From Thermoanaerobaculia bacterium (lineage in GTDB: Bacteria > Acidobacteriota > Thermoanaerobaculia > Gp7-AA8): DNA of 64,000 nt. Of the stretch, positions 23,472 through 45,178 are shown one piece after another; the stretch's first letter is position 1, and each line of letters opens with the position of its first letter. A program made the position numbers and the translations under genes. Under the pieces are notes generated by a model. That model was not told the DNA's origin. It saw only the letters and a list, made by a program, of their open reading frames with translations, and ran no database searches. The stretch covers positions 62,001 to 126,000 of the forward strand of contig JADGNZ010000009.1 in assembly GCA_017883205.1 (NCBI GenBank), in the 5' to 3' direction.

Positions 23472-24170
23472 ATGCGGCGATCGTCGGTACTGTTCCTCTT
23501 AGCATATCTAGTCGCGACAACCGTCGCCTCGGCCGCGACGTTCTCGGGGCGAGTCGTCTCTATTGCTGACGGCGACACCCTGACCATCCTTGACGCTCAG
23601 CACCAGCAACACAAGATTCGTCTGCAAGGCATCGACGCTCCAGAGTCGCGTCAGTCGTTCGGGAAAGTTTCGAAGCACAACCTCTCCTCGCTCGTGGCAG
23701 GGCGCGACGTCATCATCGAATACGTGAAGTTCGATCGATACGGCCGCGCGGTGGGAAAGGTGTTGGTGAGTGGGGTAGACGCAAACCTGGAGCAGGTCCG
23801 AGCTGGCCTCGCCTGGGTCTACACCGACTACGAGGGTGAGCTCACACCAAGCGATCGGAGCTTGTATCGCGCCGCCGAACGACAAGCGCGCTCGCTTCAC
23901 GCCGGTCTCTGGGCCGAAAGCAATCCGCTGCCACCGTGGGTGTTTCGCCGGCAAGCGCGCAACCACTCCGAAGGAACGCCCCGATCGGCTGCCGCGACGA
24001 TGCCCCCCTCGACCGCACCTGGCGCCGTGATCGGCAACCGCCGCAGTCACATCTTCCATCGGCCAGACTGTCCCAACTATGCTGACGTCTCAGCCAAGAA
24101 CCGGGTCGTTTTCGCTACGGCCGCGGCCGCGGAAGCCGCTGGGTATCGGCAGGCGAGAAACTGCCCCTAG
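23472..24170 (+). CDS. Secreted thermonuclease (SNase) with C-terminal sunset-type domain
   Basis: A 232-residue exported nuclease with a signal peptide (first about 22 residues). The staphylococcal nuclease core runs from FSGRVVSIADGDTLTILDA to about residue 150, with the catalytic Arg and Glu in IRLQGIDAPESRQ and a second Arg in FDRYGRAVGKV. The C-terminus (GNRRSHIFHRPDCPNYADVS ... AGYRQARNCP) is a small Cys/His module as in sunset/excalibur-like domains, possibly metal-binding. It degrades RNA/DNA outside the cytoplasm. It lies directly upstream of the channel-vWA gene, after which base composition appears to shift. Confidence 0.9.
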   Translation: MRRSSVLFLLAYLVATTVASAATFSGRVVSIADGDTLTILDAQHQQHKIRLQGIDAPESRQSFGKVSKHNLSSLVAGRDVIIEYVKFDRYGRAVGKVLVSGVDANLEQVRAGLAWVYTDYEGELTPSDRSLYRAAERQARSLHAGLWAESNPLPPWVFRRQARNHSEGTPRSAAATMPPSTAPGAVIGNRRSHIFHRPDCPNYADVSAKNRVVFATAAAAEAAGYRQARNCP

Positions 24171-24429: not shown

Positions 24430-27279
24430 ATGCCGCGGCCAAGTCTCGCGCGCGATGGCGTTGGCGCAATCGCTATCGCCATATTTCTGAACATCGTCCT
24501 CGGCTTGTACTTCGCGGCCGATGGCCGCGTCGACCCTCGGGCACCGTTGCCGTTGTACGCCATCCGACCTACGACGGAACTCCTCGCCACGCTGCAGAGC
24601 GCGAGCACCCAGCCGATCCCGTTGATTCCCGTCGCATTCCGAAAGCCGGACAGCGACTCACTCGCGAATACACTTCTCGGTCTTCTCGTCTGGCTCCCCG
24701 CCACGGTGGGCGTCCTAGCGGCGTTGCTTCAGTACCACTGCGTACGCAGCGCGCTACTCGCCGCTGCCGATGATCGTTCCAAGCGGGACGGGGACTTACT
24801 CAACCTAGCCGTGCGACGCGCCGCGATCGTCACCGGCTTGTTATTTGTGATCGCGATCACATGGGCCGTGCTCGACAATGCATTCATAAGTCTACTGCTC
24901 GCGCTGCTCGTTCTGGGTATGGTTCTCTTAATCTCGGTGAGATCGGAGATCCCCAACCGTTTCGTGCTGATTGCGGCGCTTCTCTTCATGGTCTCTGGCT
25001 TGGCGGCCTCGATCACCTCGCATCGCTTGTACACGACGTACCACGGCCTCGTGTTGGTGCCGTTCAGCGACCAAGAGGAAGAGCAACGGCTGCTGACGGA
25101 CGTTCAGCGAGACATCAATCTGACGCCAAATTTGACGGCAAACGATGTCTTCGATCGTATCGAACGACTGCCATCCTTGGGTGGGTGGCACTCGGGCATG
25201 GCAATCTTCGCAAAGAACCGTGTAGCCACGAGGGGAGTGATCATTTCAGCGCTCATCTACTTGCTCGCCTTTTCACCCGGCTTGCAGCGGCTAAAGTCCG
25301 AGTATCAAATGCGCACAGGCTTCGTCATCGCCTACGCCTTGGTTCTATATCTTGCTGTGGGCGCGGCATTCGGACTGCTCTATTTTAATGAAGTACTGGC
25401 TGAGGCAGGACGTCAGAATGTTCTCTGTATCTTAGCTGGCGGAGCATCGGCTCCAGAGGCAGAGTTTGATCAGCTAAAGGTGCAATTCGCGCTCTTCGGC
25501 TGGAGCGAGAAGCTGGAGCGCGCGATCGAACAGATACGCCGCTCCACAACACGGCACTCTTCGGAAGTGGTTAAGGCGGCGCTTGCAGAGCACTGGTCGA
25601 ACAGCGTCATTGCTCAGGAACAACCCCAGAGCATTCGCGCTGCAGACGGGCGGCTGCTACCGGAAGCGCACCTAGTGACGAATCAGACCCTTGCCGACAT
25701 GTTCTATTTCTCGTTCGCTTCCTTCACGACTACCGGCTATGGCGACATTCGACCAGTAAGCGACTCCGCGCGTCTCTGGTCGATCATAGAGAACATTGCG
25801 GAGTTGCTCTTCACCGCGATCTTCTTCGTCGTGGCTCTAGCCGAGGCGAAGGCGGACGAAGAGCCGCCAAACTCCGCCGCAACCCCGGTCACGACCACTA
25901 TAAACGACACGACGAAGGCTCTCACCGTTGTTGCTTGTCTTTCCGCCGTGTTCTTGTCACGTTGTACGACCATAAGAGAACAGCCGATCGACGCGAGTGA
26001 GTTGCGAGGGACACCGGAGGCTCTGTGTCCCGCGCCAATGCCACCCGACGACGTGCAGGTACATGTAATCATCGATGACTCCCTTTCGATGCGGGGATAT
26101 TTCCGAGCTCAAGGTTCAGACTACCCAACCATACTCAATTCGTTACTCAATACCTTGCAGTCGACCTCCCGCGCGACGTTCTACCGCCTGTCGTCGCCGA
26201 AAACGCCGATCGAGATGGATGCCTCATACAATGACACCTTCTACAACCGGCCGAGCACTCCCCTCGCCGGTGCATTCCGACTCGTGCGGAACATCGATGC
26301 GAAGATTTCAATCGTCCTCATATCCGATTTTGTTGAGCCCGAGCATGGCGGTTTCCAGCAATTAAGTCGAGAACTCACCGCCGCGATGAAAACTCGGCCC
26401 TTCGTGGCGCTGTACGGCTGGAAGACACCGTACCGCCAAAACGACACGCAGTTGGGCGACCGTCCGTGGTACGCGCTTCTCATGTCTAGCTCGGAAGAGG
26501 GCCTTTCACTCGTCGAGCGCGCCTCAGGCGTGCAGGCGGCGAGCTTCCGCGGGACGGTCGAAAGCGTCAGCGCCGCGCGGCCCGCCGGACCGAACATCTT
26601 TAGGTCGCGATCATTCGCTCAGGTAGCTTCGCTTGAGTGGGTGGCAGACCAGTCTTCTGATCTTGGTTGGCAACCCGCCGTGAAGGACCAGCCGCTTCAC
26701 AAATGTGACAAATCGGAGCAGGCAGTTCAATACTCGGCGTACGTCCGACTCGCGCCCGACAACGGCGAGCTGCGTTTTCGAGGAGCGCTTGTCACAACGA
26801 TTCCGCTGAAAGACGTGGGCGACATAGCGGTTAGCGTTCGACGCGTTGACCGCGATGCGCACGGCAACTTAGTCAACGACGGGGTGGCCCCAAGGAACTC
26901 ATCCGTAAGAGTGCTTAGATACATCCAGGCAGACCCGTCACCAGCGGTCAGCCGAGCACGTCGAGCCCAGACTGCTTCTGCCTGCGGCGACAGCCAGGTG
27001 GAGGAACGATCGGAACCCGCCCCTCCACAGAGTATTCCGGTCGAAATTGTGTATTCCCTTCCGATTGACGGAGAGAAAACATCGTACATTGTCGAATTCC
27101 ACCCCGGACGTCTAAACCTGAGCTGCCCAAAGTGGATCTCCGATTGGTCCACGAGGGACCGAGGAACGTGGTGCAAGACGTTCAATCTCCAGGACATCGT
27201 CCAAGCAATCATTGAGGCGTCATCGAAGACGGAGACGTTTCTAATCCAGCGGCTCGTTTTAGCGAGGGCTGGTTCTTAA
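24430..27279 (+). CDS. Potassium-channel-like membrane protein fused to periplasmic vWA domain
   Basis: A 949-residue protein with a strong ribosome site (GGAGGA at 24421). Several TM segments occupy residues about 10-320. The pore region FASFTTTGYGDIRPVSD (about 428-444) has the potassium selectivity signature TxGYGD and is followed by a TM at about 451-475. A further hydrophobic stretch with a lipobox-like end (VACLSAVFLSRC, about 500-513) leads to a vWA-type domain: HVIIDDSLSMRGYF gives the MIDAS DxSxS pattern near 548, then IVLISDFVEP. The last about 250 residues are beta-rich. The vWA part resembles the lipoprotein at 30118-31761. Its stop overlaps the next start (TAATG). Likely inner-membrane with periplasmic C-terminus; ion selectivity is inference. 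Confidence 0.82.
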   Translation: MPRPSLARDGVGAIAIAIFLNIVLGLYFAADGRVDPRAPLPLYAIRPTTELLATLQSASTQPIPLIPVAFRKPDSDSLANTLLGLLVWLPATVGVLAALLQYHCVRSALLAAADDRSKRDGDLLNLAVRRAAIVTGLLFVIAITWAVLDNAFISLLLALLVLGMVLLISVRSEIPNRFVLIAALLFMVSGLAASITSHRLYTTYHGLVLVPFSDQEEEQRLLTDVQRDINLTPNLTANDVFDRIERLPSLGGWHSGMAIFAKNRVATRGVIISALIYLLAFSPGLQRLKSEYQMRTGFVIAYALVLYLAVGAAFGLLYFNEVLAEAGRQNVLCILAGGASAPEAEFDQLKVQFALFGWSEKLERAIEQIRRSTTRHSSEVVKAALAEHWSNSVIAQEQPQSIRAADGRLLPEAHLVTNQTLADMFYFSFASFTTTGYGDIRPVSDSARLWSIIENIAELLFTAIFFVVALAEAKADEEPPNSAATPVTTTINDTTKALTVVACLSAVFLSRCTTIREQPIDASELRGTPEALCPAPMPPDDVQVHVIIDDSLSMRGYFRAQGSDYPTILNSLLNTLQSTSRATFYRLSSPKTPIEMDASYNDTFYNRPSTPLAGAFRLVRNIDAKISIVLISDFVEPEHGGFQQLSRELTAAMKTRPFVALYGWKTPYRQNDTQLGDRPWYALLMSSSEEGLSLVERASGVQAASFRGTVESVSAARPAGPNIFRSRSFAQVASLEWVADQSSDLGWQPAVKDQPLHKCDKSEQAVQYSAYVRLAPDNGELRFRGALVTTIPLKDVGDIAVSVRRVDRDAHGNLVNDGVAPRNSSVRVLRYIQADPSPAVSRARRAQTASACGDSQVEERSEPAPPQSIPVEIVYSLPIDGEKTSYIVEFHPGRLNLSCPKWISDWSTRDRGTWCKTFNLQDIVQAIIEASSKTETFLIQRLVLARAGS

Positions 27280-27731
27280 TGTCCAGTGTCATCCCCTCGT
27301 TCCTGAGCGCACCGGTGTCGCCGTCACTGCCCTACGACCTTTGGCAGGTTGTGGTCCATGAGACCGTAATTTGGATACGCGTGGCTGGCATCACGGCCGG
27401 GATGGCAACGTTCGCAGCGTCCGATTCACGCCTCACGACGCTCTTCAGGCGATTGGGTAGATTCGTTCCGATCGCGATTATTCTACTGCCCGGCGTGATT
27501 GCGGGCTGTATCGTCGCGCTGAAATTCGATGCCGCATTCGAGGCGACATTTCATATGCCTGCGCCAGATATGGGGTCCTACGAGATCCGGTGCGCCACAT
27601 GGACGCTCCTGCCGCAACTGGTTATCGTGATGGCGTCACGCCTAGTTCACCACCTGCGACTGCTGACGAAGGTTGCGAATTGGTTCAGGGTAAAAGGACA
27701 ACAACTTCTCCAACTCGCTAAAGACCTCTAA
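27279..27731 (+). CDS. Small membrane protein coupled to channel-vWA gene
   Basis: A 150-residue protein with about three hydrophobic segments (about 20-48, 62-84 and 105-122). The middle one is VPIAIILLPGVIAGCIVAL. The basic cytosolic tail reads HLRLLTKVANWFRVKGQQLL. The start overlaps the upstream stop in TAATG, so it is almost surely co-expressed with the channel-vWA protein. No family recognised; it may be an accessory subunit. Confidence 0.75.
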   Translation: MSSVIPSFLSAPVSPSLPYDLWQVVVHETVIWIRVAGITAGMATFAASDSRLTTLFRRLGRFVPIAIILLPGVIAGCIVALKFDAAFEATFHMPAPDMGSYEIRCATWTLLPQLVIVMASRLVHHLRLLTKVANWFRVKGQQLLQLAKDL

Positions 27732-27795
27732 TAGTGCGGATTCCGTAGGCGGGCGCTCCGGCATTGAGACCTGTCCTCCTGATTTGCCGGCATAC

Positions 27796-28536
27796 TCACT
27801 TCCGGTTCCCGGTTGTGGGCTGCTGGCGGACGCCGGCTGCCTTGTAGTCGAAGATTATACGGATCGTCGTCCGGCGATTCATATCGTCGCAGGGATCAGC
27901 GCCGCGATCGTCGGCTGCGGCCCGGCAGGCGTCATCTGTCGGGTCACAAAGATCGCGCAGCGCAACGCAATCGCGCTTTCCATCGGCGTCTCGAGGGTCT
28001 TTTGCGGGTTCAGAGCTGGCAAGGCCAAGGGAAACCACGTTGTACCCTTGCTTCAATCCGAGGCTGTTCTGAGACAGCGCGTACATTACGGAGCTGGCCC
28101 GCCTTGCGCTGAGATTCCAGTTGTATGTGAACTGTTCCCGCTCGCGCGTTTCATAGTGTAGAGGCCGCGAATCAGTGTGGCCTTCCACGACAATTCGAAC
28201 GAGCTTCTTGATGTTGAGTTGGGGGTTCTTTCGTTCCTGTTCCTTCAGGGCGCTCAAGAGCACCGAGGTAATGCGCTGAATCTCCCGGAGGTCTTCTTTC
28301 TTGATCTCATCTTTGCCGGTCTCGAAATTGAGCAAGAGGTTGACGCAGAGATCCTGATCGGAGCACGGCTTAACGTCACGGGTCGCTTTGCTGATGTTGG
28401 CCAGTACGTCCGCCGCCATCTGCTGGGCGGGCGACTGTCTGGCGACGTCAACGGCGATGACAGCGAACATCAGAACGACCAGTCCGCTGAAGAGATCGAC
28501 GTATGCCGGCCAGGGCGAAAAGCGGCGTCCGCTCAT
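27796..28536 (-). CDS. MotB/ZorB-like stator subunit with OmpA domain
   Basis: A 246-residue protein with one N-terminal TM. The stretch PAYVDLFSGLVVLMFAVIA aligns with the MotB/ZorB segment in which a conserved Asp at the head of the TM binds the driving ion; here it is D14. A periplasmic helical linker is followed by an OmpA-type peptidoglycan-binding domain: RIVVEGHTDSRP, NLSARRASSVMYAL and the closing NRRTTIRIIF. An acidic, Cys-bearing insertion (about 195-222) precedes the last motif. The start overlaps the MotA-like gene's stop in ATGA, giving a coupled MotA/MotB pair. Confidence 0.87.
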   Translation of the reverse strand: MSGRRFSPWPAYVDLFSGLVVLMFAVIAVDVARQSPAQQMAADVLANISKATRDVKPCSDQDLCVNLLLNFETGKDEIKKEDLREIQRITSVLLSALKEQERKNPQLNIKKLVRIVVEGHTDSRPLHYETREREQFTYNWNLSARRASSVMYALSQNSLGLKQGYNVVSLGLASSEPAKDPRDADGKRDCVALRDLCDPTDDACRAAADDRGADPCDDMNRRTTIRIIFDYKAAGVRQQPTTGNRK

Positions 28537-30104
28537 CGTTTCTTCTTGGGCTGTGAGCCCTTTCTCCGCCAGAAAGCTCCGATCGGCCGTCGCAAGGTGT
28601 CAACCACGGCGCTGCTGGCGCGACGAATTACCCCAGGTGGTCGCGCAGATGCAAGGGTAGTTTTCTCGAGCTTCGCGGCCGAGAGCTCTATTCGATCCGT
28701 CATGCTGGCCAGCGTCGAGGCGAGCAGTTTGGCAGACGATGAGAGCTTTTCGGCCGAATCACGGTAGAGGCGGTTGAGATCCGCGCTGGTGGTCTTCGTC
28801 GCGCTGGCAAACTCGTGCCCGGCCCGGGCAGCCTCGTCGACGGCCTCTTTTGCCGACTTCGCAGCGGTCTCGAGCTCACTCCGAAACTGAGGATCGATCT
28901 CTTTGACAATCTGTTCGCGGAGAGTCTGTGCCTCTTCCCTCCAGGCGGTATCATAACGTTCAAAGGAGTTCTGCGCGTTCGCGACGGATGTGTCGACACG
29001 CACCGCAACACCTTCGAAGTCCTTCTTCAGCCGCTCGAAATCGGAGGTGACGGTCGACATCGCGTTCACCATGTTGATCTGGAACTGATGTCGGGCTTCG
29101 CTGTAGAGGTCCTTTAACTCTTGCTCGCGGGCCTCGGACGCCTCGTTGTAACTTGCGACGAGCGCGGCCGTCAGGTCTGCGCGCAGGTCCGCAGGCACCC
29201 TCTGCATCGCTGCTGCTGCTCCCGTTACCGAGGCGCTCATGTATGTGAGGGCGGTGTCGTATTTCTCGAAGGCTGTAGAGGCGTGATCTGTGGCCAGATC
29301 CAGCTTGGAGGTGATCTTGGCGAAATAGTCGTTGATGTTCGACGAGAGGGTCGTGGCGCTCTTGAGTGCAGCTCGCGACGTTTCGGCCATTTCCTTCAAA
29401 CCGACAACACTCGCGGAAATTTGTGCGCCACTCTCTCTCAGGGCGCTGGCGGCCTCGACCAAGGCGGTCTTTGCATTTGAGAGCTCGTCACGCTGCTGAG
29501 CCATCATGATTGGGATTGGCTGAAGCGTACTCGCCAGTTTTTCGATTACCGGCTCAAGGGAAAGGTGCAGTGTCGCGCCGAAGTTGGCGACGGGCTCGAG
29601 GACCTGCGTGAGTTTGGTCAGGACCGGGTCGGCGAACACGTCCATGAACGCCTCGATCTTCTTCCGTTTCGATGACTCGATCCAGTCGGCGATCAGGTTG
29701 CCGAAAAGGGTCAACAGGAGCCCGATAAACCCGACTGGAAAGGCCTTCGCGATTCCCCGGAAAAGGAGCTGGATCGTTTCATTCGCCCGTGCGGCGGCTC
29801 CCAGAGCGCCACTGCTCGCCGACTGCGCTGCTGCCCCGGCATTGCCAAATGACGATGCCACTTCCCACAGGCCCAGAAACGTGCCGGCGATCCCAACGAG
29901 TAGAAAAAGGCCGATCAAGCCGCGAATGTAGTTCGAGCGAATCTCGAACTGCTGCCAGATCGTGGGCGCCGGCTCGTCGTCGAACTTCCAGCGCGCGAAG
30001 CTGAAGAGGCTCTTGAGAACGAGGAATGAAATAAACAGATGTCCCACCGCGAAGATGCGGGCATGCTCCCAGTACGCGCTGAAAACGGACTGAATCAGGT
30101 CCAT
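28533..30104 (-). CDS. MotA/TolQ/ZorA-like channel subunit with long helical tail
   Basis: A 523-residue protein. Residues 1-140 hold three TMs: about 15-35, IGLFLLVGIAGTFLGLWEV (about 64-82) and FRGIAKAFPVGFIGLLLTLF (115-134). The GTFLGL and GLLLTLF segments match the MotA/TolQ/ExbB proton-channel family, including its pore threonines (T75 and T132). About 380 residues of predicted cytosolic helix/coiled coil follow, rich in Ala, Glu and Ser, ending with a basic tail. ExbB and TolQ lack such a tail; Zorya ZorA proteins have one. I chose the ATG at 30104 (MDLIQSVFSAYW); 30 codons upstream overlap the neighbouring gene. It pairs with the MotB-like gene. Confidence 0.86.
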   Translation of the reverse strand: MDLIQSVFSAYWEHARIFAVGHLFISFLVLKSLFSFARWKFDDEPAPTIWQQFEIRSNYIRGLIGLFLLVGIAGTFLGLWEVASSFGNAGAAAQSASSGALGAAARANETIQLLFRGIAKAFPVGFIGLLLTLFGNLIADWIESSKRKKIEAFMDVFADPVLTKLTQVLEPVANFGATLHLSLEPVIEKLASTLQPIPIMMAQQRDELSNAKTALVEAASALRESGAQISASVVGLKEMAETSRAALKSATTLSSNINDYFAKITSKLDLATDHASTAFEKYDTALTYMSASVTGAAAAMQRVPADLRADLTAALVASYNEASEAREQELKDLYSEARHQFQINMVNAMSTVTSDFERLKKDFEGVAVRVDTSVANAQNSFERYDTAWREEAQTLREQIVKEIDPQFRSELETAAKSAKEAVDEAARAGHEFASATKTTSADLNRLYRDSAEKLSSSAKLLASTLASMTDRIELSAAKLEKTTLASARPPGVIRRASSAVVDTLRRPIGAFWRRKGSQPKKKR

Positions 30105-30117
30105 TGATTCATGCGGC

Positions 30118-31761
30118 TCACTGCGTGTCCGTGGTTGCCGCGGCCGGACGCGGCGGGGGGTCCGTGCGGCAGACGTTGAGAGATGCCACGTCACGCGCGG
30201 ATGCGTCCTGCGTGATGGTACGCATCACTTCGATCAACATTCGATCCAGCGCAAGCACCTTGAACGGTTCGTCGATCAGTGAGTCGGTCGAGAGCTTCTG
30301 GAGGTAGGCGACTGCCCCTACCGGCGCCTTTCGATCGGAAAGCCGCTCCGCAGCATCAGAATAGGCGACCTTTGCTACAACGCGAATGGTCGTGGGCTGG
30401 TCGCAGGGCCGCCCACCACCGCCACATCGAATGTGCAATTCGCCGCGCATGGCGCCCTGCTGGTCTGCTCCTGCTTGTGAAAGAGTGAGTGAGCGGACGA
30501 TCGCGGCCCCGTCCTGGCGCTCCGTCTCAGCGATTTTCGTGGGCAATTCGGGAAGGTACTGAACGCTTGGCAATGAAAAAATCCGGTGGCAGCCGTTGTC
30601 GCCTGTTCCTGTTGAGAAGGTCAGGTCGATGATCTCGTCGGGCGTCGACTCTCTCGCAGCCGCGCAAGCCACCTCCGCGCGAAATGGGTTCCCATCCTGC
30701 ATTCGTTTGATCGCGATGAATCCACCCGCGTCCTCCGGAACGTCCGCGGCCTGGTGTTTCCTCTGCTGGCCGTGGATCAAAGAAACACGCGGAATGTAGC
30801 CTGGGTACAATTCGACGGGGGTGAAGGCTCCCAGCGCTTTGTCGGTAGCCTCGCTGAACACCGTGAAGTTTTCACCGAGGAGTGCTACGCGGTAGAGGTT
30901 GGCGCGCTCGTATAGGGAAGACAGAAATATGCGTCCCATGCTCGCATCCTTCGCCAGCACGATGACAAGCAGAGTTCGAGGGCCTGTATAAAAGAACGGA
31001 TTGAGCGCGCGATCTTCAGCGTCATTCGTGCGCAGCCGGATGTCGCCTCCAAGAGTCTCCTTGAGTCGCCGCGCCGTCTTGTCGGCCCATTCGGGGTCAT
31101 TGGGAATCTGCTGTCCCTCCCCGGAGAATTTGCCGTCATAGCGACCAAAGAGCGGCATGATCCAAATGCCTGGGTGCGCATTGGCGTCAATGAACTGGCG
31201 CAAGCGCTTCGCGACACAAGTCACGTCCACCTGCCCCGCACAACTGCTGCTCTTACCGGCTGCGGTGTACGGAACACCGTCGGTCACGATGACCGTCACT
31301 GACTCATCGTTGGCGTGGCCGACGATCTCGTCGAGATTCGTATCACCATGAGTCACGGTGTAGTTGATGGTGTCTTCCTGAGTCGGCAGATCGACAAGTC
31401 CCTCGGCGCTGAAAGCCTGAATGCGTGCGAGGGAAAACTCGACGCCGGAAGTGGGAGCACCAATCGAAGAACGCTTGACCCATTGAGCGAGCGGACTCAT
31501 GACGCCAGGGATGCTGAAGCCATGCATGGAACCTGAGGCATCGAGGAAGATTTGTACGCTGGCGGCTCGATCGGCCGGTCGCTCGTCTCGAACACAAAGG
31601 TCGTACGCGGCGAGAGGAGTACCGGCGGGCGTTCCCTTCAAGTCGATCGCAAGTACGGACGGGGGGGGCGGTGACACATCCTGATGCTCGGGTGGCCGGC
31701 AACCCGCGATCGTCAGTAGGGCGGCACAAGTCAGTGCGGAAACAACGATGACTCTTTTCAT
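30118..31761 (-). CDS. vWA-domain lipoprotein
   Basis: A 547-residue lipoprotein: signal peptide with lipobox TIAGC (lipidated Cys21). A von Willebrand A-like domain begins near residue 68, with the MIDAS motif FLDASGSMHGF (D74, S76, S78) and a later VTVIVTDGVPY, consistent with Mg-dependent ligand binding. After the vWA comes an Ig-like or beta-rich region with several Cys pairs (SSSCAGQVDVTCVAK, IRCGGGGRPC). I chose the ATG at 31761; a TTG two codons earlier is weaker. It lies between the ASKHA and MotA-like genes. The vWA module resembles that of the channel fusion protein, suggesting paired periplasmic sensors or adhesins. Confidence 0.85.
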   Translation of the reverse strand: MKRVIVVSALTCAALLTIAGCRPPEHQDVSPPPPSVLAIDLKGTPAGTPLAAYDLCVRDERPADRAASVQIFLDASGSMHGFSIPGVMSPLAQWVKRSSIGAPTSGVEFSLARIQAFSAEGLVDLPTQEDTINYTVTHGDTNLDEIVGHANDESVTVIVTDGVPYTAAGKSSSCAGQVDVTCVAKRLRQFIDANAHPGIWIMPLFGRYDGKFSGEGQQIPNDPEWADKTARRLKETLGGDIRLRTNDAEDRALNPFFYTGPRTLLVIVLAKDASMGRIFLSSLYERANLYRVALLGENFTVFSEATDKALGAFTPVELYPGYIPRVSLIHGQQRKHQAADVPEDAGGFIAIKRMQDGNPFRAEVACAAARESTPDEIIDLTFSTGTGDNGCHRIFSLPSVQYLPELPTKIAETERQDGAAIVRSLTLSQAGADQQGAMRGELHIRCGGGGRPCDQPTTIRVVAKVAYSDAAERLSDRKAPVGAVAYLQKLSTDSLIDEPFKVLALDRMLIEVMRTITQDASARDVASLNVCRTDPPPRPAAATTDTQ

Positions 31762-31774
31762 TACCAATCTCTCG

Positions 31775-34645
31775 TCACACCTTTGGCAGCCACTGTTTTT
31801 CGATCAGCAATTGAAGTGGCCCGCGGGTGTACCGCACGCCGCTGTGATATTCATCCGTCTGGAGATCCGCCCGCAACAACCCGGCATCGAAGGCCTGGGT
31901 CGCCCAGGCCTTCCCGTTCTCCGTCTGCAACCGGGTCCTGAAGGCTGCTTCGTCAAATTCGAGGGCGTCGTTGACGAATTTCTTATCAGCTGCTTCGCCT
32001 ACGAAGAGCGCATGCCAGGGATACCTCACCTCTCCGTTGGCGGAGTCGATTCCGATCGGGAGCTTAGCCGCTATCTCCTTCTCCGGAGAATCGACCGCCA
32101 TCGTCGCGACTCGCAGACATCCGCTGGCAACAGCTTGCTTCGGATTGTTGACGTGATGGGCACTTAGATCCAGCTTGACTCCATGTTGAGCCTCCATGGC
32201 CGCGGAGAGATTCTTCGCAAGCCGGCCGATTTCTTCTTTTACGAAGGCCGCCCCCTCCTCTTGCATCGGATCGGCCATGAGCTCATAGAATCGCCAACCG
32301 TTTCCGAGCGGGTACAAAGAGACCTTCTCTACGGGGTCGTGTTGCGAGCCGCGAGAGATGTACGAGCCAAGGAACGCCTCGAGGGCGACGAAGAGGAGTT
32401 GGTAGTACCGGTCTACCTCCGGTTTCCGGCGAGCCCAGTCCTTGCGGTCCGCCTTTCCCCTAGCGATGTTCATGGCGGCAGTGGCATATGCTTCGAGGTC
32501 GAGAGATTGCGCGCCTCGCCTCAGGAAGTACGATCCACCCACTTCCAGCGATCCGATCTGATCCTTGGCCGGACCATCGGTACTCCTGCCGATGGAGACG
32601 TCCAACGTTCCGCCGCCGAGATCTGCCGTGAACACCAATTCCTTCGCATGGGGTTGACCGAGAGAGGTCACGCCTGCAGTAGCTTCGTCGACGAACCGCG
32701 TCTTCGCGCGTGCCGTTGCAGGGTCTCCGCCTGTCCGGTTCGAAGCACGTTCGACCACACTGGCGATTTCTCCTTTGAACATTTCGAGGCGCTTCGCCGT
32801 GAACGTAAGCGGATACGAGAAGACACCCCGCACATTCAGGGGGCGGTCTCTAACTTGCCTCGAGGCCCCGATCAGTCCATGGATGAGCATCTCGGTCAGG
32901 TATTCGATGCGAATCTGGGCACGCAGCGGATCCGATTTGAATAGAAAGTCGTCGCGTGTAACGCTGTTGCAGCATGGCGTGCTGACGATACGCGCGACGC
33001 GATGGTCCTGACAGTAGACTGACTGAAAGCTCGTGTCGTCTGCGGCGCCCTTCGGAGCCAGACGATCTGCGGCGCCTTCGAAGTCGGCGGAGACGGTCAA
33101 TCCAACTACAGCCTGTCTCAGGTCAGAGCCGCTCAATTCATGCGAATCCGAGTGTGTCCCCTCCAGACTGAAGCGAAGGGCTGTGTTGGAGCTGCCGAAA
33201 TCGAAGCCGACGAAGAACTCGATTGGCGGCAATCCGCTGCGCGTTTCCTTGCGGCTCAGCAGCACCGTGCATGAAGCCTTCACGCTAGAGGTATTGGACA
33301 ACTCGAATGCCGGCAGCTCCGTGGCTTTACTCTCCGTGCGGATGCGGTTTTCACCGACGCCGCGCACATTCTTAGCGGAAGACGGAACTTGAATCGTTAA
33401 CCCGTCAGCAGTAGCAATGTCGAACCAGCTCCAGGTTGGCGGCACCAGGGTGGGGTTCGGATACATGGCAATCGACCCGGCCATGCTCGCAGCAGGGAGG
33501 AAGATCCACGAAATGTCGGCTGGCAGTCCCTTGAGCCCGAGCGTTACCTCGACGCGATTGTTGACCTTGCGAGCGCGGCCGGTGTTTACCAATCGCGCAT
33601 TCTCGATTCGCACAGGCAGCGGTATGGCTGCCACAGGCGCCGCCGGGTCGGGGTCACCTGGCCAGAGATAGCTCGAGTAATTGAGATCGTCGAGGCGATC
33701 GATAACCCGAAACGGAGTCCCGGGCTGCAGATCGAACGTCAGGTTTCGCACCGGTAGATTCGCGAGCGCGCTCACCGCAGGGTAAACGAACGTAACGGTG
33801 GCCTGATCTCTGTCGACGATAGGCGCCGGAGGCATCCGTATGGCTTTGGAGGGATCAGCCCACTGCAGCGCGCGCTCGCGCCATACGACGAATTCGCCGT
33901 CAGCCCAGGCGCATCCGTAGTCAGAGAGTAGAAGTTGCCTGGTCTGTTGGCACTTCGGGCACTTGAGCGCGAACATTGGGCTGTCTGGGGCCGGCTTCAC
34001 ACTCGCGGGAAGGAGCGGAGCGGCGCACTCTGCGCAGCGCGGGAACAGGAACGAGCCGTCTCCCGTGGGAACCAGGATCTCCGTGGATTCCAACGTGTAT
34101 GGGTCCAGAAAACTGAACGGGGTCAGCACGACTTCGCTCTCGGGAGTGGTGGTCGCAGGTCCGACGGCGCGCGGGCTGATGATCGGCGACAGCCGACAAC
34201 AGAACGGCGCTGAGTTGCGCTGCTTTGCTTTTGCTTTCTCGTCCAGGTTTTTGACAAGCTCGGTCAGCCGGCCGCGGACACGTTCTGTAATGGGAGCGGT
34301 TGCATCCCATGGACTTCCCGCGAGGTGCTCGTCGGGCAACGGCCGCACGAGGAGCACCGGGCTCACGACTCCAACGATCTTCCCTTCGCGGTCCAGCCAA
34401 GAGATTTTATCGAACACAGGGGCGCCGTCCCCACGTCCTCCTTGACGAGGTACCCAATTGAGAAATGGCTGTCCTTTCAGGGGCTGCTCAATCACCTTCA
34501 AGTCGTCGTTCAAGTACCAGAGAAGAAGCTTCCACCAGGCGTTTCGCTTCTGCTCGATCTCCAGCGTCAAGTTGCCGGTGGCCTCGAGCGCAGCCAGGTA
34601 TGCGAGGTCTTCATGGAAGAAATTGCCAATCGAAAGCGGATTCAT
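31775..34645 (-). CDS. ASKHA (actin/Hsp70-like) ATPase with zinc ribbon
   Basis: A 956-residue cytosolic protein. Residues about 200-235 contain a zinc-ribbon-like pair, CAEC and CPKC. The middle (about 290-460) is beta-rich. The C-terminal about 480 residues form an actin/Hsp70-type ATPase: phosphate-1 loop VGFDFGSSNTALRFS (about 478-492), phosphate-2 loop FTADLGGGTLDVSIG (about 671-685) and a helical C-terminus. It resembles Hsp70-like virulence-factor proteins of the SrfB type in general layout only; I cannot assign a family. The start overlaps the tubulin-like gene's stop (ATGA), so an actin-like and a tubulin-like NTPase are translationally coupled. Confidence 0.83.
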   Translation of the reverse strand: MNPLSIGNFFHEDLAYLAALEATGNLTLEIEQKRNAWWKLLLWYLNDDLKVIEQPLKGQPFLNWVPRQGGRGDGAPVFDKISWLDREGKIVGVVSPVLLVRPLPDEHLAGSPWDATAPITERVRGRLTELVKNLDEKAKAKQRNSAPFCCRLSPIISPRAVGPATTTPESEVVLTPFSFLDPYTLESTEILVPTGDGSFLFPRCAECAAPLLPASVKPAPDSPMFALKCPKCQQTRQLLLSDYGCAWADGEFVVWRERALQWADPSKAIRMPPAPIVDRDQATVTFVYPAVSALANLPVRNLTFDLQPGTPFRVIDRLDDLNYSSYLWPGDPDPAAPVAAIPLPVRIENARLVNTGRARKVNNRVEVTLGLKGLPADISWIFLPAASMAGSIAMYPNPTLVPPTWSWFDIATADGLTIQVPSSAKNVRGVGENRIRTESKATELPAFELSNTSSVKASCTVLLSRKETRSGLPPIEFFVGFDFGSSNTALRFSLEGTHSDSHELSGSDLRQAVVGLTVSADFEGAADRLAPKGAADDTSFQSVYCQDHRVARIVSTPCCNSVTRDDFLFKSDPLRAQIRIEYLTEMLIHGLIGASRQVRDRPLNVRGVFSYPLTFTAKRLEMFKGEIASVVERASNRTGGDPATARAKTRFVDEATAGVTSLGQPHAKELVFTADLGGGTLDVSIGRSTDGPAKDQIGSLEVGGSYFLRRGAQSLDLEAYATAAMNIARGKADRKDWARRKPEVDRYYQLLFVALEAFLGSYISRGSQHDPVEKVSLYPLGNGWRFYELMADPMQEEGAAFVKEEIGRLAKNLSAAMEAQHGVKLDLSAHHVNNPKQAVASGCLRVATMAVDSPEKEIAAKLPIGIDSANGEVRYPWHALFVGEAADKKFVNDALEFDEAAFRTRLQTENGKAWATQAFDAGLLRADLQTDEYHSGVRYTRGPLQLLIEKQWLPKV

Positions 34646-35949
34646 TTGCCCGCCCTCCTGCGCATCAGTCGGTACAGCAGTTCGGCGGCCGCGGCGCGAA
34701 GCACACTTTCGGCCTCTGGGTACGCGGCCTCGAGAATCGGATGAAGTCGCTCAGGAAGTTCCGCCGACGCCAGTGCTTCCCTCAACGCGGTGAAGTCGAC
34801 AATCGCGGGCTGCCTCGCCACCAGAGCGCCATCAAGCTGCCGGAACGTGTCGGCCATCGCGGCCGAGACTTTGGGGATGAATTTATCGAACGACTCTCCC
34901 TCAACGCGATCCATCCACTTCTTCCAGAACTGGAGCACACCGTCCCTTAGGAATCTCCCGACATATGCGCGGCTCAGGGGGTCCCGGCTGATAGTCTGCA
35001 GAAAGTTCCCGCTCACCAGGTAGCGGACAGCGTTCTTTGCCTTCTGCGAGCGATCCTTGAGTGCATCGCGAAGACGATTCACGCCGGCCACGTCGTCAGG
35101 AATACCGCCGATGGTTGTCGTCACAGGATTCTCGTATTCCTGCAACAGCCTGCTGATCCACCACGCACCTGCCCAGATCGGATTGCGGTCGGGAGGGAAC
35201 TTGCGGTCCGCGTCCTTGTCCCAGATCTCGTCCTGCGGGGACTCGAGCACCCGCCGCACGAAAAGCTTGGTGCCGCCGGCATCATACGCGTCGATATTCC
35301 GAACAAATTCCTCGTGGTTCTGATCGTGGCGGTCGACCAGATCGGCGTTGGCACGTGCCTCGCGAAATGTCAGATACCGACCCAGAGCAATGACGCTGAT
35401 GAAGCGCACCCCTCGGGAGCGGAGCAACTGAAGAATCGACGGAGTGAATCCGGTGCCTGCGCCCCCGAACGTGGAAGTAATCACGACCGCGCCGTCGACA
35501 TCGCCGAGGGCCGCGTACAGGTCAGAGATGAGCTTCCCAGCGTAGTACGGCCACGCAAAACCAAGGGCCGCGGGCGTCGCAAAAAGCCCTTCGTCGAGTC
35601 TGGCTTCGCGCAGTTTTTGCGACGCGTATGCCATTTCCGGCTTCATCGGCCGACTGCTGGCAGCGCTATTGATCACGGTCTCAATGTTTGCTTTGTCAAC
35701 CTTGAGGGAATGCCGCTCGAATGAAAACCGACTGCTTGCAGAGGTATCGATGAGGAAATCGCGCAACACCTCCCACGCCGGCCTGCGATCGCCGCCTTTT
35801 TCCGTCTCCTGATCGATCACGATTACCTTCACTTGCGGCACCGCTCCGGAGTTTTCGAGCGGCCCTATGCGCAGGAGATGCGCTCGCAGAAAGAAATCGA
35901 GAGCAGTTTGTCCCGTGCCACCAAGTGCAACGATCGCAAGGCTTGCCAT
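34642..35949 (-). CDS. Tubulin/FtsZ-like GTPase
   Basis: A 435-residue cytosolic protein. The N-terminal nucleotide loop is AIVALGGTGQTALDFFLRA (residues about 5-23). The tubulin signature appears as TSTFGGAGTGFTPSILQLL (about 155-173), a variant of the GGGTG(T/S)G motif, followed by a strand-helix pair (FISVIALGRYL). The C-terminal half is helical with no match to the usual FtsZ tail. This fits divergent bacterial tubulin-like (Tubulin_2/FtsZl) proteins rather than cell-division FtsZ. It lies 8 bp after the preceding membrane-protein gene and overlaps the ASKHA gene. GTP binding is likely; polymerisation is inference. Confidence 0.82.
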   Translation of the reverse strand: MASLAIVALGGTGQTALDFFLRAHLLRIGPLENSGAVPQVKVIVIDQETEKGGDRRPAWEVLRDFLIDTSASSRFSFERHSLKVDKANIETVINSAASSRPMKPEMAYASQKLREARLDEGLFATPAALGFAWPYYAGKLISDLYAALGDVDGAVVITSTFGGAGTGFTPSILQLLRSRGVRFISVIALGRYLTFREARANADLVDRHDQNHEEFVRNIDAYDAGGTKLFVRRVLESPQDEIWDKDADRKFPPDRNPIWAGAWWISRLLQEYENPVTTTIGGIPDDVAGVNRLRDALKDRSQKAKNAVRYLVSGNFLQTISRDPLSRAYVGRFLRDGVLQFWKKWMDRVEGESFDKFIPKVSAAMADTFRQLDGALVARQPAIVDFTALREALASAELPERLHPILEAAYPEAESVLRAAAAELLYRLMRRRAGK

Positions 35950-35957
35950 TCAGTACC

Positions 35958-36599
35958 TCATGTCCGATCTCTGGTCGTTTTTTGATGTCGTCGCGCAGTG
36001 GAATAGATATTGGGAAGAAGGGCGTAGACGACATACGCGAGCAACGCACCGACGATGGACGCCGACACGACGCTGGCGAACACCAGCAACGGATTGTCCA
36101 TCACAAAGGCTCCCCGTTTTCCCACGACGTAGCCTGTCGTCTGACGCCGCATCGCGAGAGCGTTCTGCGTCTGGTCCGGCGTGAGAACCTGCTTCTGTGC
36201 GGGATTCGTGGTGGCGTCGACTACCTTCACGTACAAGGGGTCGACACCTACCCACTGCCACGCGGGCGGCCAGATTGTGAGTACCAGACCGACGAGGAGC
36301 GCAACCGCTGCAGGAATGAGCGCACCCCAAAGGCATCGCTTGCCGATCCGGAGGTAGTCGCGATCCGTCAAGGCTAGAACGAGGGGTAGAACAAACGGTA
36401 ACAAAAACCCGACCAGGAAGAACCCCCATACGACTTCATCGATCAACGTGGCGACGCTCTGATCGATGTGGTCCAGCTTCGTAATAACTTGGTCGATTTG
36501 ATCGTGGGTCCCGCGAATCGTGGTTTGTCGATTGCACCCAACTCCTATCAGAAGAAGGGCGCTGACGAGCAGAACGGCCTTCCATCGCTTCGCCTTCAT
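35958..36599 (-). CDS. Membrane protein with lipobox-like N-terminus, first gene of the operon
   Basis: A 213-residue protein. The ATG at 36599 follows a strong GGAGGTG ribosome site; two GTG codons just upstream lie within that site. The N-terminal hydrophobic segment ends GVGC (Cys22), a weak lipobox. A helical stretch (DQIDQVITKLDHIDQSVATL) is followed by TMs at about 58-78 and 92-110, a loop of about 60 residues containing LTPDQTQNALAMRRQTTG, and a final TM at about 168-192. No family recognised. Gaps to the following genes are short, so it belongs to the same transcript as the tubulin-like and later genes. Confidence 0.78.
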   Translation of the reverse strand: MKAKRWKAVLLVSALLLIGVGCNRQTTIRGTHDQIDQVITKLDHIDQSVATLIDEVVWGFFLVGFLLPFVLPLVLALTDRDYLRIGKRCLWGALIPAAVALLVGLVLTIWPPAWQWVGVDPLYVKVVDATTNPAQKQVLTPDQTQNALAMRRQTTGYVVGKRGAFVMDNPLLVFASVVSASIVGALLAYVVYALLPNIYSTARRHQKTTRDRT

Positions 36600-36767
36600 C
36601 ACCACCTCCGTCTGTTGTCCTAAAAGGGAGCAGTTGACCTCGCGAGAACGACGATACGCGTCGTTGCGCTCAGTTCCGCGTTTGATCGTTTGGAATTGAT
36701 ACCGATTGCCGCAGGTATTCTAGACTGCCGGGATGGCAATGGTCCAGCTATCGTTCCGGTATCTCGT
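36600..36767. promoter_or_regulatory. Divergent intergenic region between the NTPase/stator operon and the Mla-type operon
   Basis: This 168-bp gap separates two divergently transcribed units and must contain the promoter of at least the minus-strand operon. A ribosome site for the minus-strand gene is visible at 36604-36610. I could not identify confident -35/-10 boxes or operators by eye. Confidence 0.5.
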
Positions 36768-38186
36768 ATGAACGACTCCGCTTCTTCGCCTGCAGGCGCC
36801 CCGCCCGCGATCGAGATCCGAGGCTTGAACAAGCTTTCCGTGCGCGGCGCCGACCTCACCGTGTGGCAGGGAGATCGTGTTGCCATCATCGGAAAGACAG
36901 GGCAAGGCAAGTCAGTGCTGCTCCGGTGTATCCTCGGCCTACTCTCTCCCGACAGTGGCGACCTGCGGCTGATGGGGCGTAAGGTGACACGCCGTTCCAT
37001 CGCCTCGGAAGGCGTTGGCGTCGCCTTCCAGCACCCCGGTCTTCTCGACGCTTGGTCCGTTGCCAAGAATCTCCGTGTCGCCACACGCGACGTTTTGAGT
37101 CGGAGCCGGATTGTTGAACTGCTCGCGTCTGTTGGGTTGACCTCGGTCGATCCCGAATCGTCAGTGACTCTGCTGTCAGGAGGGCAGCAGAAGCGTCTGT
37201 CTCTCCTGCGCGCGCTGCTTCGGGGCAATCGGCTTGTCGTGCTGGACGAGCCGACGAGCGGCCTCGACCCGCGAACAGCCGAGGCGATTGCCGAGATGAT
37301 GGCCGACGCTATCCGAAACGAACCACGTACGCTGCTCCTCGTCACCCACGACTACGAGACCGCTGTCCGGTTGTGCAACCGCATCATCACTCTCAGGCAC
37401 GACGGCACTCTTGTCGAAGTACCGATTCCTTCTACCGGAAGGGTCGTAGATGACGCCGTGGCACTTCGCGACGCGTTGCCGGACGAAGAAGCTACTATCA
37501 AGGGCCGGACCACGCGACCACCACGCTGGGGCATCGTTCCACTCACACTCGACCTGCTCGCCTTCGGCGTGCCACTTGCCGGTGTTGCGATGGGCTTGCT
37601 GGGCACACTGCTCGTGGCGCAGAGCGCGAAAGTCGGGGCTTTTGACGTAAGCCGCTACATTCCAGGAGCCGTCCTCCTCGGAGTCTGCCGCGAGATGGCC
37701 CCACTGGTCGTTGGTTTTCTACTCGCAGCCCGAGCGGGCGCGCGCGTGACGGCGGAACTGGCTGGCATGAGCTACACCGCTCAACTCGACTCCCTCCGGG
37801 CTCTGGGGCGTTCGCCCATCCGTCATTTTTTTCTGCCGTTTCTCACCAGTGCCGCCATCGCTTTCCCAATTTCGATCCTGGCCGGTGCCGCCCTTGCCAT
37901 CGGCGCGGCGGGTTTGTATGTCGGCCTGCCAACCGCAGGATTGAGTATCGGTACTCGCAGATTTTTCGACCTTGCCCGCGAAAGGATGGAAATGGCGCTG
38001 CTCTTCTCCATGCTGCTCAAGGGCGTCGGGATGGCGGCGACGGTGGTGACCGCGTCCTACTGGTGCGGCGCTCGGAGCGTGACCAGCGCGCCTGCCGTTG
38101 GGAGAGCGGTCACGCGCGCTGCGGTCCTGGGGTCGCTATCCGTAGTGCTCGTGGACATCGTTGTTTCGTGGCTCTTTTTCGGATGA
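36768..38186 (+). CDS. Fused MlaF-MlaE-type lipid transporter (ABC ATPase plus permease)
   Basis: A 472-residue protein joining an ABC ATPase to an MlaE-family permease. ATPase (about 10-235): Walker A IIGKTGQGKSVLLR, Q-loop FQHPGLLD, signature LLSGGQQKRLSLLRAL, Walker B LVVLDEPTSGLD and H-loop LLVTHDYE. The permease half (about 255-472) has four to five TMs and the MlaE-typical CREMAPLVVGFLLAARAGAR and ELAGMSYTAQLDSLRALG. These two parts are normally separate genes in Mla/Ttg2/TGD systems, which move phospholipids between membranes. I chose the ATG at 36768 (MNDSASSPAG). It overlaps the next gene region and is divergent from the stator operon. Confidence 0.92.
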   Translation: MNDSASSPAGAPPAIEIRGLNKLSVRGADLTVWQGDRVAIIGKTGQGKSVLLRCILGLLSPDSGDLRLMGRKVTRRSIASEGVGVAFQHPGLLDAWSVAKNLRVATRDVLSRSRIVELLASVGLTSVDPESSVTLLSGGQQKRLSLLRALLRGNRLVVLDEPTSGLDPRTAEAIAEMMADAIRNEPRTLLLVTHDYETAVRLCNRIITLRHDGTLVEVPIPSTGRVVDDAVALRDALPDEEATIKGRTTRPPRWGIVPLTLDLLAFGVPLAGVAMGLLGTLLVAQSAKVGAFDVSRYIPGAVLLGVCREMAPLVVGFLLAARAGARVTAELAGMSYTAQLDSLRALGRSPIRHFFLPFLTSAAIAFPISILAGAALAIGAAGLYVGLPTAGLSIGTRRFFDLARERMEMALLFSMLLKGVGMAATVVTASYWCGARSVTSAPAVGRAVTRAAVLGSLSVVLVDIVVSWLFFG

Positions 38187-38198
38187 AAGGAACGGACA

Positions 38199-38686
38199 TG
38201 AACTACAGGAAGCTCGGCCTCATCTCACTCTTGATTCTGGTGTCGCTTACGATTCACTGTCGGCAGGAGGAGGGACCTACGGAACTTCACTTCACCCTTA
38301 CGTTCAAGGACGCCCAGCAACTTCGCCCCGGCCAGTTCTTCCTGTACAAGGGTGTCCGAATCGGCCAGGCGACTTCTGTAACCCTCGATGGTTCTGGTGT
38401 GGTGAAGGTCAGTATGACGGTCGACGAGACGCATCGCGAACAGGTATACCGGGAAGCAACGTTCACGATCGAGAAGCTCAGTCTGCTGAACCCCAGCGGC
38501 GAGCATCAAATCGTCATGACGGATGGCGGCGATACCCACACACCGATTGAGGAAGGCGCTGTCATCGCCGGGAGCGAGGGCTGGCTCAGCGACGCAGCGG
38601 AGAAGGCTGGGCAGCTAGTGAATACCGCCACCGATCTAGCTTCGGACGCTGCCAAGAAACTCGGCGACAAGGCAAAGAAACCCTGA
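38199..38686 (+). CDS. MCE/MlaD-like substrate-binding protein
   Basis: A 162-residue exported protein with an N-terminal hydrophobic anchor (LGLISLLILVSLTIHC). A single MCE domain spans about 30-110: FTLTFKDAQQLRPGQFFLY, then KGVRIGQATSVTLDGSG and TVDETHREQVYREA. The C-terminal about 45 residues form an amphipathic Ala/Lys-rich helix. I prefer the ATG at 38199 because it has AAAGGA 7 bases upstream; an ATG at 38183 overlaps the transporter stop (ATGA) and is the alternative. MlaD-type proteins form hexameric rings that carry lipid for the adjacent ABC transporter. A terminator-like hairpin follows. Confidence 0.86.
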
Positions 38687-44896: not shown

Positions 44897-45039
44897 TCTT
44901 CCTCCATTGATTGCAAGTGGTCTGAATGTTGACCACTTCGTCGTTGATTGACCCAGGGAGTGTGCAGTTCTTGACCAGAAGAAGGGGTGACTGGTGGGGA
45001 GATTGATGTTGAAGTGCAGGTAAAGTGCCTCTGTTGGGG

Positions 45040-45175
45040 AGTGGGGTGTAGGGAGTGGGGTGTGGGAGGGATTTGGTGTCGGGTGTCGGGTGTCGGAGAA
45101 AAAAATCGGCACGGCAAATTCTTGTTCCGACTTCCACTCCCTACTCCCCACACCCCACTCCCCGCATAGAATCAC
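45040..45175. repeat. G-rich/C-rich inverted repeat, second block
   Basis: GGGGAGTGGGGTGTAGGGAG (about 45038-45057) faces ACTCCCCACACCCCACTCCCC (about 45144-45164), with a GTGTCGGGTGTCGG pair inside. It lies in the divergent gap between the lamin-tail gene and the hydratase gene, so it may hold promoter signals I cannot resolve. Confidence 0.75.
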
Positions 45176-45178
45176 CAC

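What the first reader, a model, noticed from the sequence alone, without database searches (positions are those of the whole stretch)
24430..36599. Candidate new multi-component machine: ZorA/ZorB-like stator with tubulin-like and actin-like NTPases and two vWA proteins
Seen: eight tightly packed genes. The minus-strand operon encodes a membrane protein, a tubulin-like GTPase, an ASKHA ATPase, a vWA lipoprotein, a MotA-like subunit with long tail and a MotB/OmpA-like subunit; gaps are 0-14 bp, with ATGA overlaps at 34642 and 28533. The plus-strand pair is a channel-vWA fusion plus a small membrane protein. Known: MotA/MotB, TolQ/TolR and ZorA/ZorB convert ion flow into movement. From memory, a comparative-genomics study (Makarova and Koonin, about 2010) described divergent FtsZ-like proteins together with vWA, GTPase and OmpA-family genes as a putative membrane-remodelling system; this locus may be an extended relative. 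Inference: a periplasmic vWA sensor passes a signal through an ion-driven stator to cytosolic cytoskeletal NTPases. The combination of stator, tubulin-like and actin-like parts with a potassium-channel fusion is not one I know.
Basis: partly seen in the sequence, partly recalled or inferred. Interest (0 to 1): 0.95.

Follow-up and report, generated by a model that had tools for sequence, protein, structure and literature searches.

The report
Ion-motor operon with paired cytoskeletal NTPases
A bacterium carries a run of genes, found in the same order in distantly related bacteria, that encodes a pair of proteins resembling ion-driven membrane motors beside a tubulin-like and an actin/Hsp70-like protein; they are predicted to work as one machine across the cell envelope, likely to sense damage such as a virus attack.

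Summary
A six-gene minus-strand operon (36605-27796) encodes a lipobox/membrane protein, a tubulin-like protein, an ASKHA (actin/Hsp70-fold) protein, a vWA lipoprotein and a ZorA-like/ZorB-like stator pair. The operon is a real unit: it recurs in the same order, with proteins about 24-37% identical, in two other genomes of the phylum (G377; G358, split over two contigs), and in a third (G031) where the stator and vWA genes are assigned mainly by place. In G031, G377 and G406 the tubulin-like and ASKHA domains are fused in one polypeptide, strong evidence that they work together. Of 396 genomes sampled, 8 carry this ASKHA type; 7 of these have a tubulin-like partner adjacent or fused, and 4 also have the stator. 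The tubulin-like family is nearer to FtsZl1/Tubulin_2 than to FtsZ; the stator is nearest to Zorya, but no Zorya effector was found. The plus-strand channel-vWA pair was not found in the three other stator loci and looks accessory. Best reading: a Zorya-like stator coupled to a tubulin/ASKHA NTPase switch, likely an envelope-breach defence. Coupling and role are inferred.

The parts
35958..36605 (-). Gene 1: small protein with a lipobox-like motif (GVGC) and several membrane segments (start GTG 36605 or ATG 36599)
   Evidence: membrane proteins of similar size (182-202 aa) stand at the same place in G031, G358 and G377; matched by place and membrane pattern only
34642..35949 (-). Gene 2: tubulin-like protein, 435 aa
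   Evidence: family
35449..35466 (-). Glycine-rich GTP-loop motif GGAGTG (residues 162-167), invariant in 11 of 11 close relatives
   Evidence: a GG[AT]G loop is present in 9 of 9 rows of the wider alignment
31775..34645 (-). Gene 3: ASKHA (actin/Hsp70-fold) protein, 956 aa; CxxC pairs in the N-terminal half, ASKHA domain about residues 475-858
33182..33202 (-). ASKHA phosphate-1 motif DFGSSNT (residues 482-488)
   Evidence: DFG[ST][ST][NH]T in 8 of 8 aligned rows
32600..32623 (-). ASKHA phosphate-2 motif DLGGGTLD (residues 675-682)
   Evidence: D-x-GGG-[TS] in 8 of 8 aligned rows
30118..31767 (-). Gene 4: vWA lipoprotein (lipobox IAGC, MIDAS-like motif DASGSM)
   Evidence: relatives in G358 and G377
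28533..30104 (-). Gene 5: MotA/ZorA-like stator subunit, three predicted membrane segments and a long helical tail (523 aa from ATG 30104)
27796..28536 (-). Gene 6: MotB/ZorB-like stator subunit, one membrane segment and an OmpA-type peptidoglycan-binding domain
28495..28497 (-). Codon of Asp14 at the start of the MotB-like membrane segment, the candidate ion-binding residue
   Evidence: WPxxxDL kept in 4 of 4 aligned B subunits
24430..27279 (+). Channel-vWA fusion (pore motif GYGD, C-terminal vWA motif DDSLSM); convergent unit, probably accessory, not core
   Evidence: no relative seen in the other stator loci
27279..27731 (+). Small membrane protein behind the channel-vWA gene; probably accessory

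Best explanation
The operon encodes a ZorA/ZorB-like stator pair, a vWA lipoprotein, a small membrane protein and a tubulin-like/ASKHA pair, and it is predicted to work as one envelope-spanning machine that likely detects envelope breach. Shown: the parts, their order, the kept Asp in the B-subunit membrane segment, the OmpA domain, the intact nucleotide-binding motifs, and tubulin-ASKHA fusions in three genomes. Inferred: the B subunit holds peptidoglycan and the vWA lipoprotein holds a periplasmic partner; breach or ligand binding opens ion flow through the A/B ring; movement of the A-subunit tail in the cytosol then switches the nucleotide state or assembly of the tubulin-ASKHA complex, which is the effector or its platform. 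The most likely role is anti-phage or envelope-breach defence, with the tubulin/ASKHA module standing where Zorya has ZorCD or ZorE.
For: Same gene order in diverged operons: G377 and G358 by profile for tubulin, ASKHA, vWA, A and B subunit, G031 by place for vWA and stator. Three tubulin-ASKHA fusions (G031, G377, G406). 7 of the 8 genomes with this ASKHA type, out of 396 searched, have the tubulin partner, 4 of 8 the stator. By equal contig length, 9 of 10 close tubulin-like and 7 of 9 close stator relatives share a contig with an ASKHA relative. ZorB HMM 6.5e-14; A-subunit profile matches solved ZorA 8qyd at E 4e-4 over positions 58-508. Zorya needs ion flow, peptidoglycan binding and the ZorA tail (PMC11890865, passages). 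Kaur et al. predict that tubulin/HSP70/vWA operons are conflict systems (PMC7159879, passages). Patchy occurrence: only the window's own genome among 196 relatives; GC 59.0% against 62.4% for the rest of the window.
Against: No known defence effector in the operon or in the ten flanking ORFs scanned. The three other loci with a stator are not low in GC against their surroundings in the same sense as the window's. The window's own A subunit matches ZorA HMMs only weakly (0.002) and in the tail, where any coiled coil may match. G031's B subunit shows no OmpA domain and no PADLOC match, and its A, B and vWA proteins are barely or not found by the family profiles. In G406, G171 and G195 the tubulin-ASKHA pair stands without a recognised stator, so the stator is not obligatory. 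Fold models are of middling confidence (pLDDT 59 and 62).
Confidence: 0.5

Rival explanations
1. An envelope-remodelling or maintenance machine, as proposed for FtsZl1 systems: the stator pulls or turns a membrane-bound tubulin/ASKHA assembly to shape or repair the envelope in normal life.
For: Makarova and Koonin proposed membrane remodelling for FtsZl1 operons with vWA and OmpA-family genes (PMC2875224, parts 1-2), and the window's tubulin-like family is nearer to FtsZl1 than to FtsZ. A fused Mla-type lipid transporter gene stands next to the operon, divergent.
Against: Patchy occurrence argues against a housekeeping role; the Mla gene was not compared in other stator loci, and none was named in the parts of those loci that were scanned.
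Confidence: 0.27
2. A motility or surface-transport motor: the stator drives movement along tubulin/ASKHA filaments or drives an envelope-spanning track.
For: Non-flagellar stators include gliding AglRS (PMC12505986, passages); the ASKHA model is close to filament-forming MamK and MreB.
Against: No adhesin, track or gliding gene was recognised among the operon proteins or the ten flanking ORFs scanned by Pfam; the stator resembles Zorya most.
Confidence: 0.08
3. Two separate modules that travel together: a tubulin-ASKHA-vWA system and an independent stator, co-located without working together.
For: The tubulin-ASKHA pair occurs without a recognised stator in G406, G171 and G195.
Against: The stator follows in the same place, order and strand in G377 and G358 and by place in G031, with overlapping genes in the window and in G377.
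Confidence: 0.08

Closest known systems
Zorya anti-phage defence (ZorAB stator with ZorCD or ZorE)
   Same: Stator with a long cytosolic tail, membrane Asp in the B subunit, OmpA-type peptidoglycan-binding domain (PMC11890865, passages)
   Different: No ZorC, ZorD or ZorE model matched in the operon or the ten flanking ORFs scanned; instead tubulin-like, ASKHA and vWA proteins in one operon
FtsZl1 (Pfam Tubulin_2) systems of Makarova and Koonin 2010
   Same: Tubulin-like protein of related type (profile score 61.3 against 37.1 for FtsZ), vWA protein, OmpA-family protein in the neighbourhood (PMC2875224, parts 1-2)
   Different: No PF13809 match, short tubulin-like protein, no P-loop GTPase found in the operon, stator and ASKHA partner present; the paper's main text holds no Hsp70, MotA or TolQ
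GAP1-N2/DO-GTPase conflict systems of Kaur et al. 2020
   Same: Some of these loci hold tubulins with two vWA proteins, others HSP70 (PMC7159879, passages)
   Different: No DO-GTPase was listed for the operon proteins; no MotA in the paper's main text
Tubulin_2 locus of G009, a genome of the same family (L008, L027)
   Same: Tubulin_2 protein, HSP70 protein with zinc-ribbon-like cysteines and a vWA-motif protein close together
   Different: Protein kinase-like gene and no stator recognised; proteins only remotely similar

Membership tests
Zorya | ZorA-like A subunit with membrane part and long tail | tested here: met
   Family profile matches solved ZorA 8qyd at positions 58-508, E 4e-4; the window's own protein alone is weak, E 0.002, tail only
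Zorya | ZorB-like B subunit with OmpA domain and membrane Asp | tested here: met
   ZorB HMM 6.5e-14, OmpA 3.4e-8, Asp in 4 of 4 aligned B subunits
Zorya | ZorC and ZorD, or ZorE, encoded beside the stator | tested here: not met
   No such PADLOC match in 8 operon and convergent proteins, 10 flanking ORFs or 6 flanking ORFs of G358 and G377
Zorya | Five A subunits around two B subunits, turned by ion flow | not testable with these tools
   No complex prediction or assay available
FtsZl1 (Tubulin_2) | Match to Pfam PF13809 | tested here: not met
   No match in the window's genome or in 11 family members at E up to 1
FtsZl1 (Tubulin_2) | Remote profile relation to Tubulin_2 proteins | tested here: met
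   Probability 93.6, score 61.3; maximum 23.0 in 60 column shuffles
FtsZl1 (Tubulin_2) | Extended coiled coil and helical C-terminal domain after the tubulin domain | tested here: inconclusive
   435 aa only; the C-terminal third is helical in a low-confidence model; no coiled-coil predictor was run
FtsZl1 (Tubulin_2) | Operon with vWA protein and P-loop GTPase | tested here: not met
   vWA motif present, but no P-loop GTPase family listed for the operon proteins at E up to 1
GAP1-N2/DO-GTPase system | DO-GTPase in the operon | tested here: not met
   Pfam has a DO-GTPase2 model (seen), and it is not listed for the operon proteins
Tubulin/FtsZ superfamily fold | Tubulin GTPase fold and glycine-rich GTP loop | tested here: met
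ASKHA superfamily fold | Actin/Hsp70 fold with phosphate motifs 1 and 2 | tested here: met

The most novel reading that the evidence does not exclude
A new class of bacterial machine in which an ion-driven rotary stator acts directly on a hybrid tubulin-actin-type assembly: ion flow turns or pulls a polymer built from a tubulin GTPase and an actin/Hsp70 ATPase that in some genomes are one chain, giving bacteria a motor-cytoskeleton coupling used to fight phages or reshape the envelope.
Probability: 0.2. Interest if true: 0.95.

Novelty: new variant of a known kind. Interest (0 to 1): 0.8.

Why it matters
It joins three lines that the papers seen here treat apart: Zorya stators, FtsZl1-type tubulins, and HSP70/vWA conflict systems. 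Natural tubulin-ASKHA fusions beside a motor make two open questions directly testable: what FtsZl1-type systems do, and how an ion-driven stator passes a signal to cytosolic NTPases.

Tried and rejected
SrfB as a relative of the ASKHA protein (a recalled lead): PF07520 rang in 0 of 60 genomes and in no control, so inconclusive. Phages, plasmids and viral contigs: no tubulin relative. GTDB r220 contigs scanned for conserved peptide words of the tubulin-like and ASKHA families: 146 and 52 stretches matched a word, none was confirmed; this reaches close relatives only and may leave out the window's own genome. Empty-site test: not possible, because the fused Mla gene beside the operon was not found in the 17 other genomes searched at E 1e-40. 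Host name: no 16S in the assembly; one close stator relative (54% identical over its length) is named Thermoanaerobaculia bacterium, a class of Acidobacteriota, so that phylum is likely, not shown. Rfam: nothing at gathering score in the window. Terminator between the convergent units: none found. Tubulin_2 neighbourhoods as direct relatives: of six Tubulin_2 loci read, only G009 contig 23 showed an ASKHA-like gene, weakly (Pfam HSP70). Class-wide ASKHA search: 13 of 148 genomes, but besides the window's own and G031 the 11 others match at 2e-4 to 1e-3 over about 65 residues of the DnaK-like motif and were not counted. Class-wide stator profile: besides the window's own, one weak tail match with a stop, and G031's stator was not found. 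Seven remote stator relatives (28-36% identical) have unseen contexts; three weaker ones were not used. ORF 35950-36429 overlaps the first gene and was set aside. That 8vvn is a Zorya structure is recalled; the table names it only MotA/TolQ/ExbB and MotB-related. Paper searches for a stator with tubulin, actin or Hsp70 parts listed no paper that describes the combination (open-licence library only; listings except for the papers named in the report). Searches gave nothing useful; one search was a wasted look-up.
Full report
What is there. Between 27796 and 36605, on the minus strand, six genes lie end to end with 4-bp overlaps or gaps of up to 13 bp: a lipobox/membrane protein, a tubulin-like protein, a large ASKHA protein, a vWA lipoprotein, a MotA-like and a MotB-like protein. 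Converging on them from 24430 are a channel-vWA fusion and a small membrane protein. The locus has 59.0% GC against 62.4% for the rest of the window; 56 other stretches of the same size span 61.3-63.4%. The three other stator loci differ little from their surroundings in GC.

Stator. The B subunit has an OmpA domain; its seven PADLOC matches are all ZorB, best 6.5e-14; NCBIfam lists type VI, MotD, MotS and other OmpA-type proteins at up to 2.4e-9. Its best solved relative is 8vvn_B, a MotB-related protein (Zorya by recall). The A-subunit family profile matches solved ZorA 8qyd at positions 58-508 (E 4e-4); of the 60 rows shown it is the only one that begins in the membrane part, the others start at 162 or later and are mostly coiled coils. 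The window's own A subunit matches ZorA HMMs only weakly and in the tail. The membrane Asp (WPxxxDL) is kept in 4 of 4 aligned B subunits.

Is it a unit? Close relatives in the public protein set: 10 tubulin-like, 13 ASKHA besides the window's own, and for the stator 9 close, 7 remote and 3 weak besides the window's own. Contig names are not given, so I judged by equal longest-contig length, which is an inference. By that, 9 of 10 tubulin-like relatives share a contig with an ASKHA relative (the tenth is on a 3,371-bp contig) and 7 of 9 close stator relatives do (the other two are on contigs of 2,724 and 3,252 bp). Five contigs hold all three. Four contigs with tubulin-like and ASKHA relatives gave no stator hit; one of them is only 5,233 bp long.

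Diverged relatives. The ASKHA profile with the G031 fusion added was run on 396 genomes of the phylum; 8 match at E 1e-5 or better, the window's own included. I read the loci of all eight. G377 has, in order, a membrane protein, a tubulin-ASKHA fusion of 1478 aa, a vWA protein, an A subunit and a B subunit (profile probabilities 96.0 for tubulin, 99.9 ASKHA, 98.4 vWA, 98.8 A, 99.6 B). G358 has the same order on two contigs, broken within the ASKHA gene (tubulin 96.6, ASKHA 97.9 and 99.6, vWA 99.5, A 99.2, B 99.3). In the seven loci of that of 79 ORFs score 40 or more, and all 16 are these tubulin, ASKHA, vWA, A or B genes; the other 63 score at most 33.9 as printed. Identity to the window's proteins is 24.5-36.8% for tubulin, ASKHA, vWA and B (A not measured). 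OmpA is found in the B subunits of G358 (above the cut-off) and G377 (just under it), and both match ZorB HMMs (4.8e-15 and 2.7e-9). The first membrane gene is matched by place, size and membrane pattern only.

G031, of the same class, has a 1599-aa fusion whose two halves match the tubulin-like and ASKHA profiles far above 100 shuffles each (41.3 against a maximum of 25.6; 72.1 against 29.3), in an operon of the same order with two further small genes. Its vWA and stator genes rest on place, on a ZorA HMM match in the tail of its A subunit (4.8e-9) and on the kept Asp; its B subunit has no OmpA and no PADLOC match, its vWA motif is degenerate, and the family profiles find its A and B subunits weakly (probabilities 5.5 and 45.6). 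G406 has a third fusion; G171 and G195 have separate adjacent genes. A vWA relative stands upstream in G406 and G171 (96.5 and 95.2) and is doubtful in G195 (12.5); no stator was recognised in these three 20-kb loci. G397 shows only the ASKHA-type gene in 11.6 kb. So 7 of 8 have the tubulin-ASKHA pair, 3 of them fused, and 4 of 8 have the stator.

What this says. Three fusions and four adjacent pairs make the tubulin-like and ASKHA proteins partners. The stator is an addition kept in diverged operons. The vWA gene lies between the NTPase genes and the stator genes in all four stator loci, in G031 by place. The channel-vWA pair was not found in the other three and is best set aside as accessory.

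Relation to known systems. The tubulin-like family is closer to Tubulin_2/FtsZl1 (score 61.3) than to FtsZ of the host and its relatives (37.1); the maximum in 60 column shuffles was 23.0 and 24.4. It has no PF13809 match, and the host keeps one ordinary FtsZ elsewhere. G009, of the same family, has a Tubulin_2 locus with an HSP70 protein bearing zinc-ribbon-like cysteines, a vWA-motif protein and a kinase-like gene, much like systems in Makarova and Koonin (PMC2875224; parts 1-2 of 5 and a term search) and Kaur et al. (PMC7159879; passages). Zorya shares the stator, not the effectors (PMC11890865; passages). The MotAB evolution paper (PMC12505986; passages) has no occurrence of tubulin or vWA. 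My searches listed no paper that describes the combination (open-licence library only).

Mechanism. Shown: parts, order, motifs, fusions. Inferred: the B subunit anchors to peptidoglycan, the vWA protein gates, ion flow moves the A tail, and the tail switches the tubulin-ASKHA assembly. Defence is preferred because of the Zorya-like stator, the patchy occurrence (only the window's own genome among 196 relatives) and the predicted conflict role of tubulin/HSP70/vWA operons. Envelope remodelling is the main rival. Neither was tested.

Noticed in passing
window 36690-38186 (+) and 38063-38686 (+): ABC ATPase and MlaE permease fused in one ORF, followed by an MlaD gene, divergent from the operon; the fusion was not found in the 17 other genomes searched at E 1e-40.
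   Followed up: partly
window 42896-45229 (-) and 46171-48024 (+): Two proteins with bacterial Ig (Big_7) and lamin-tail domains, the second with a weak metallo-beta-lactamase match.
   Followed up: no
window 23472-24170 (+): Staphylococcal-nuclease domain joined to an Ada-type metal-binding domain, just before the channel-vWA gene.
   Followed up: no
L061 3070-4827 (+): Short family-A DNA polymerase with 3'-5' exonuclease, convergent with the G358 stator genes; best PADLOC match is a reverse-transcriptase-associated polymerase model.
   Followed up: no
L064 8307-15445, L065 3907-10953, L066 7996-13676: Tubulin-like and ASKHA genes (fused in L065) behind a small membrane protein, without a recognised stator: a possible wider class.
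   Followed up: partly
proteins P0043-P0049: Seven remote relatives of the A subunit (28-36% identical, 515-599 aa) whose gene neighbours were not seen.
   Followed up: no
L026 596-1345 (-) and 1726-2829 (+): Two nuclease-like genes (Hjc-like; type I restriction R-subunit N-terminus) near the G031 operon.
   Followed up: no
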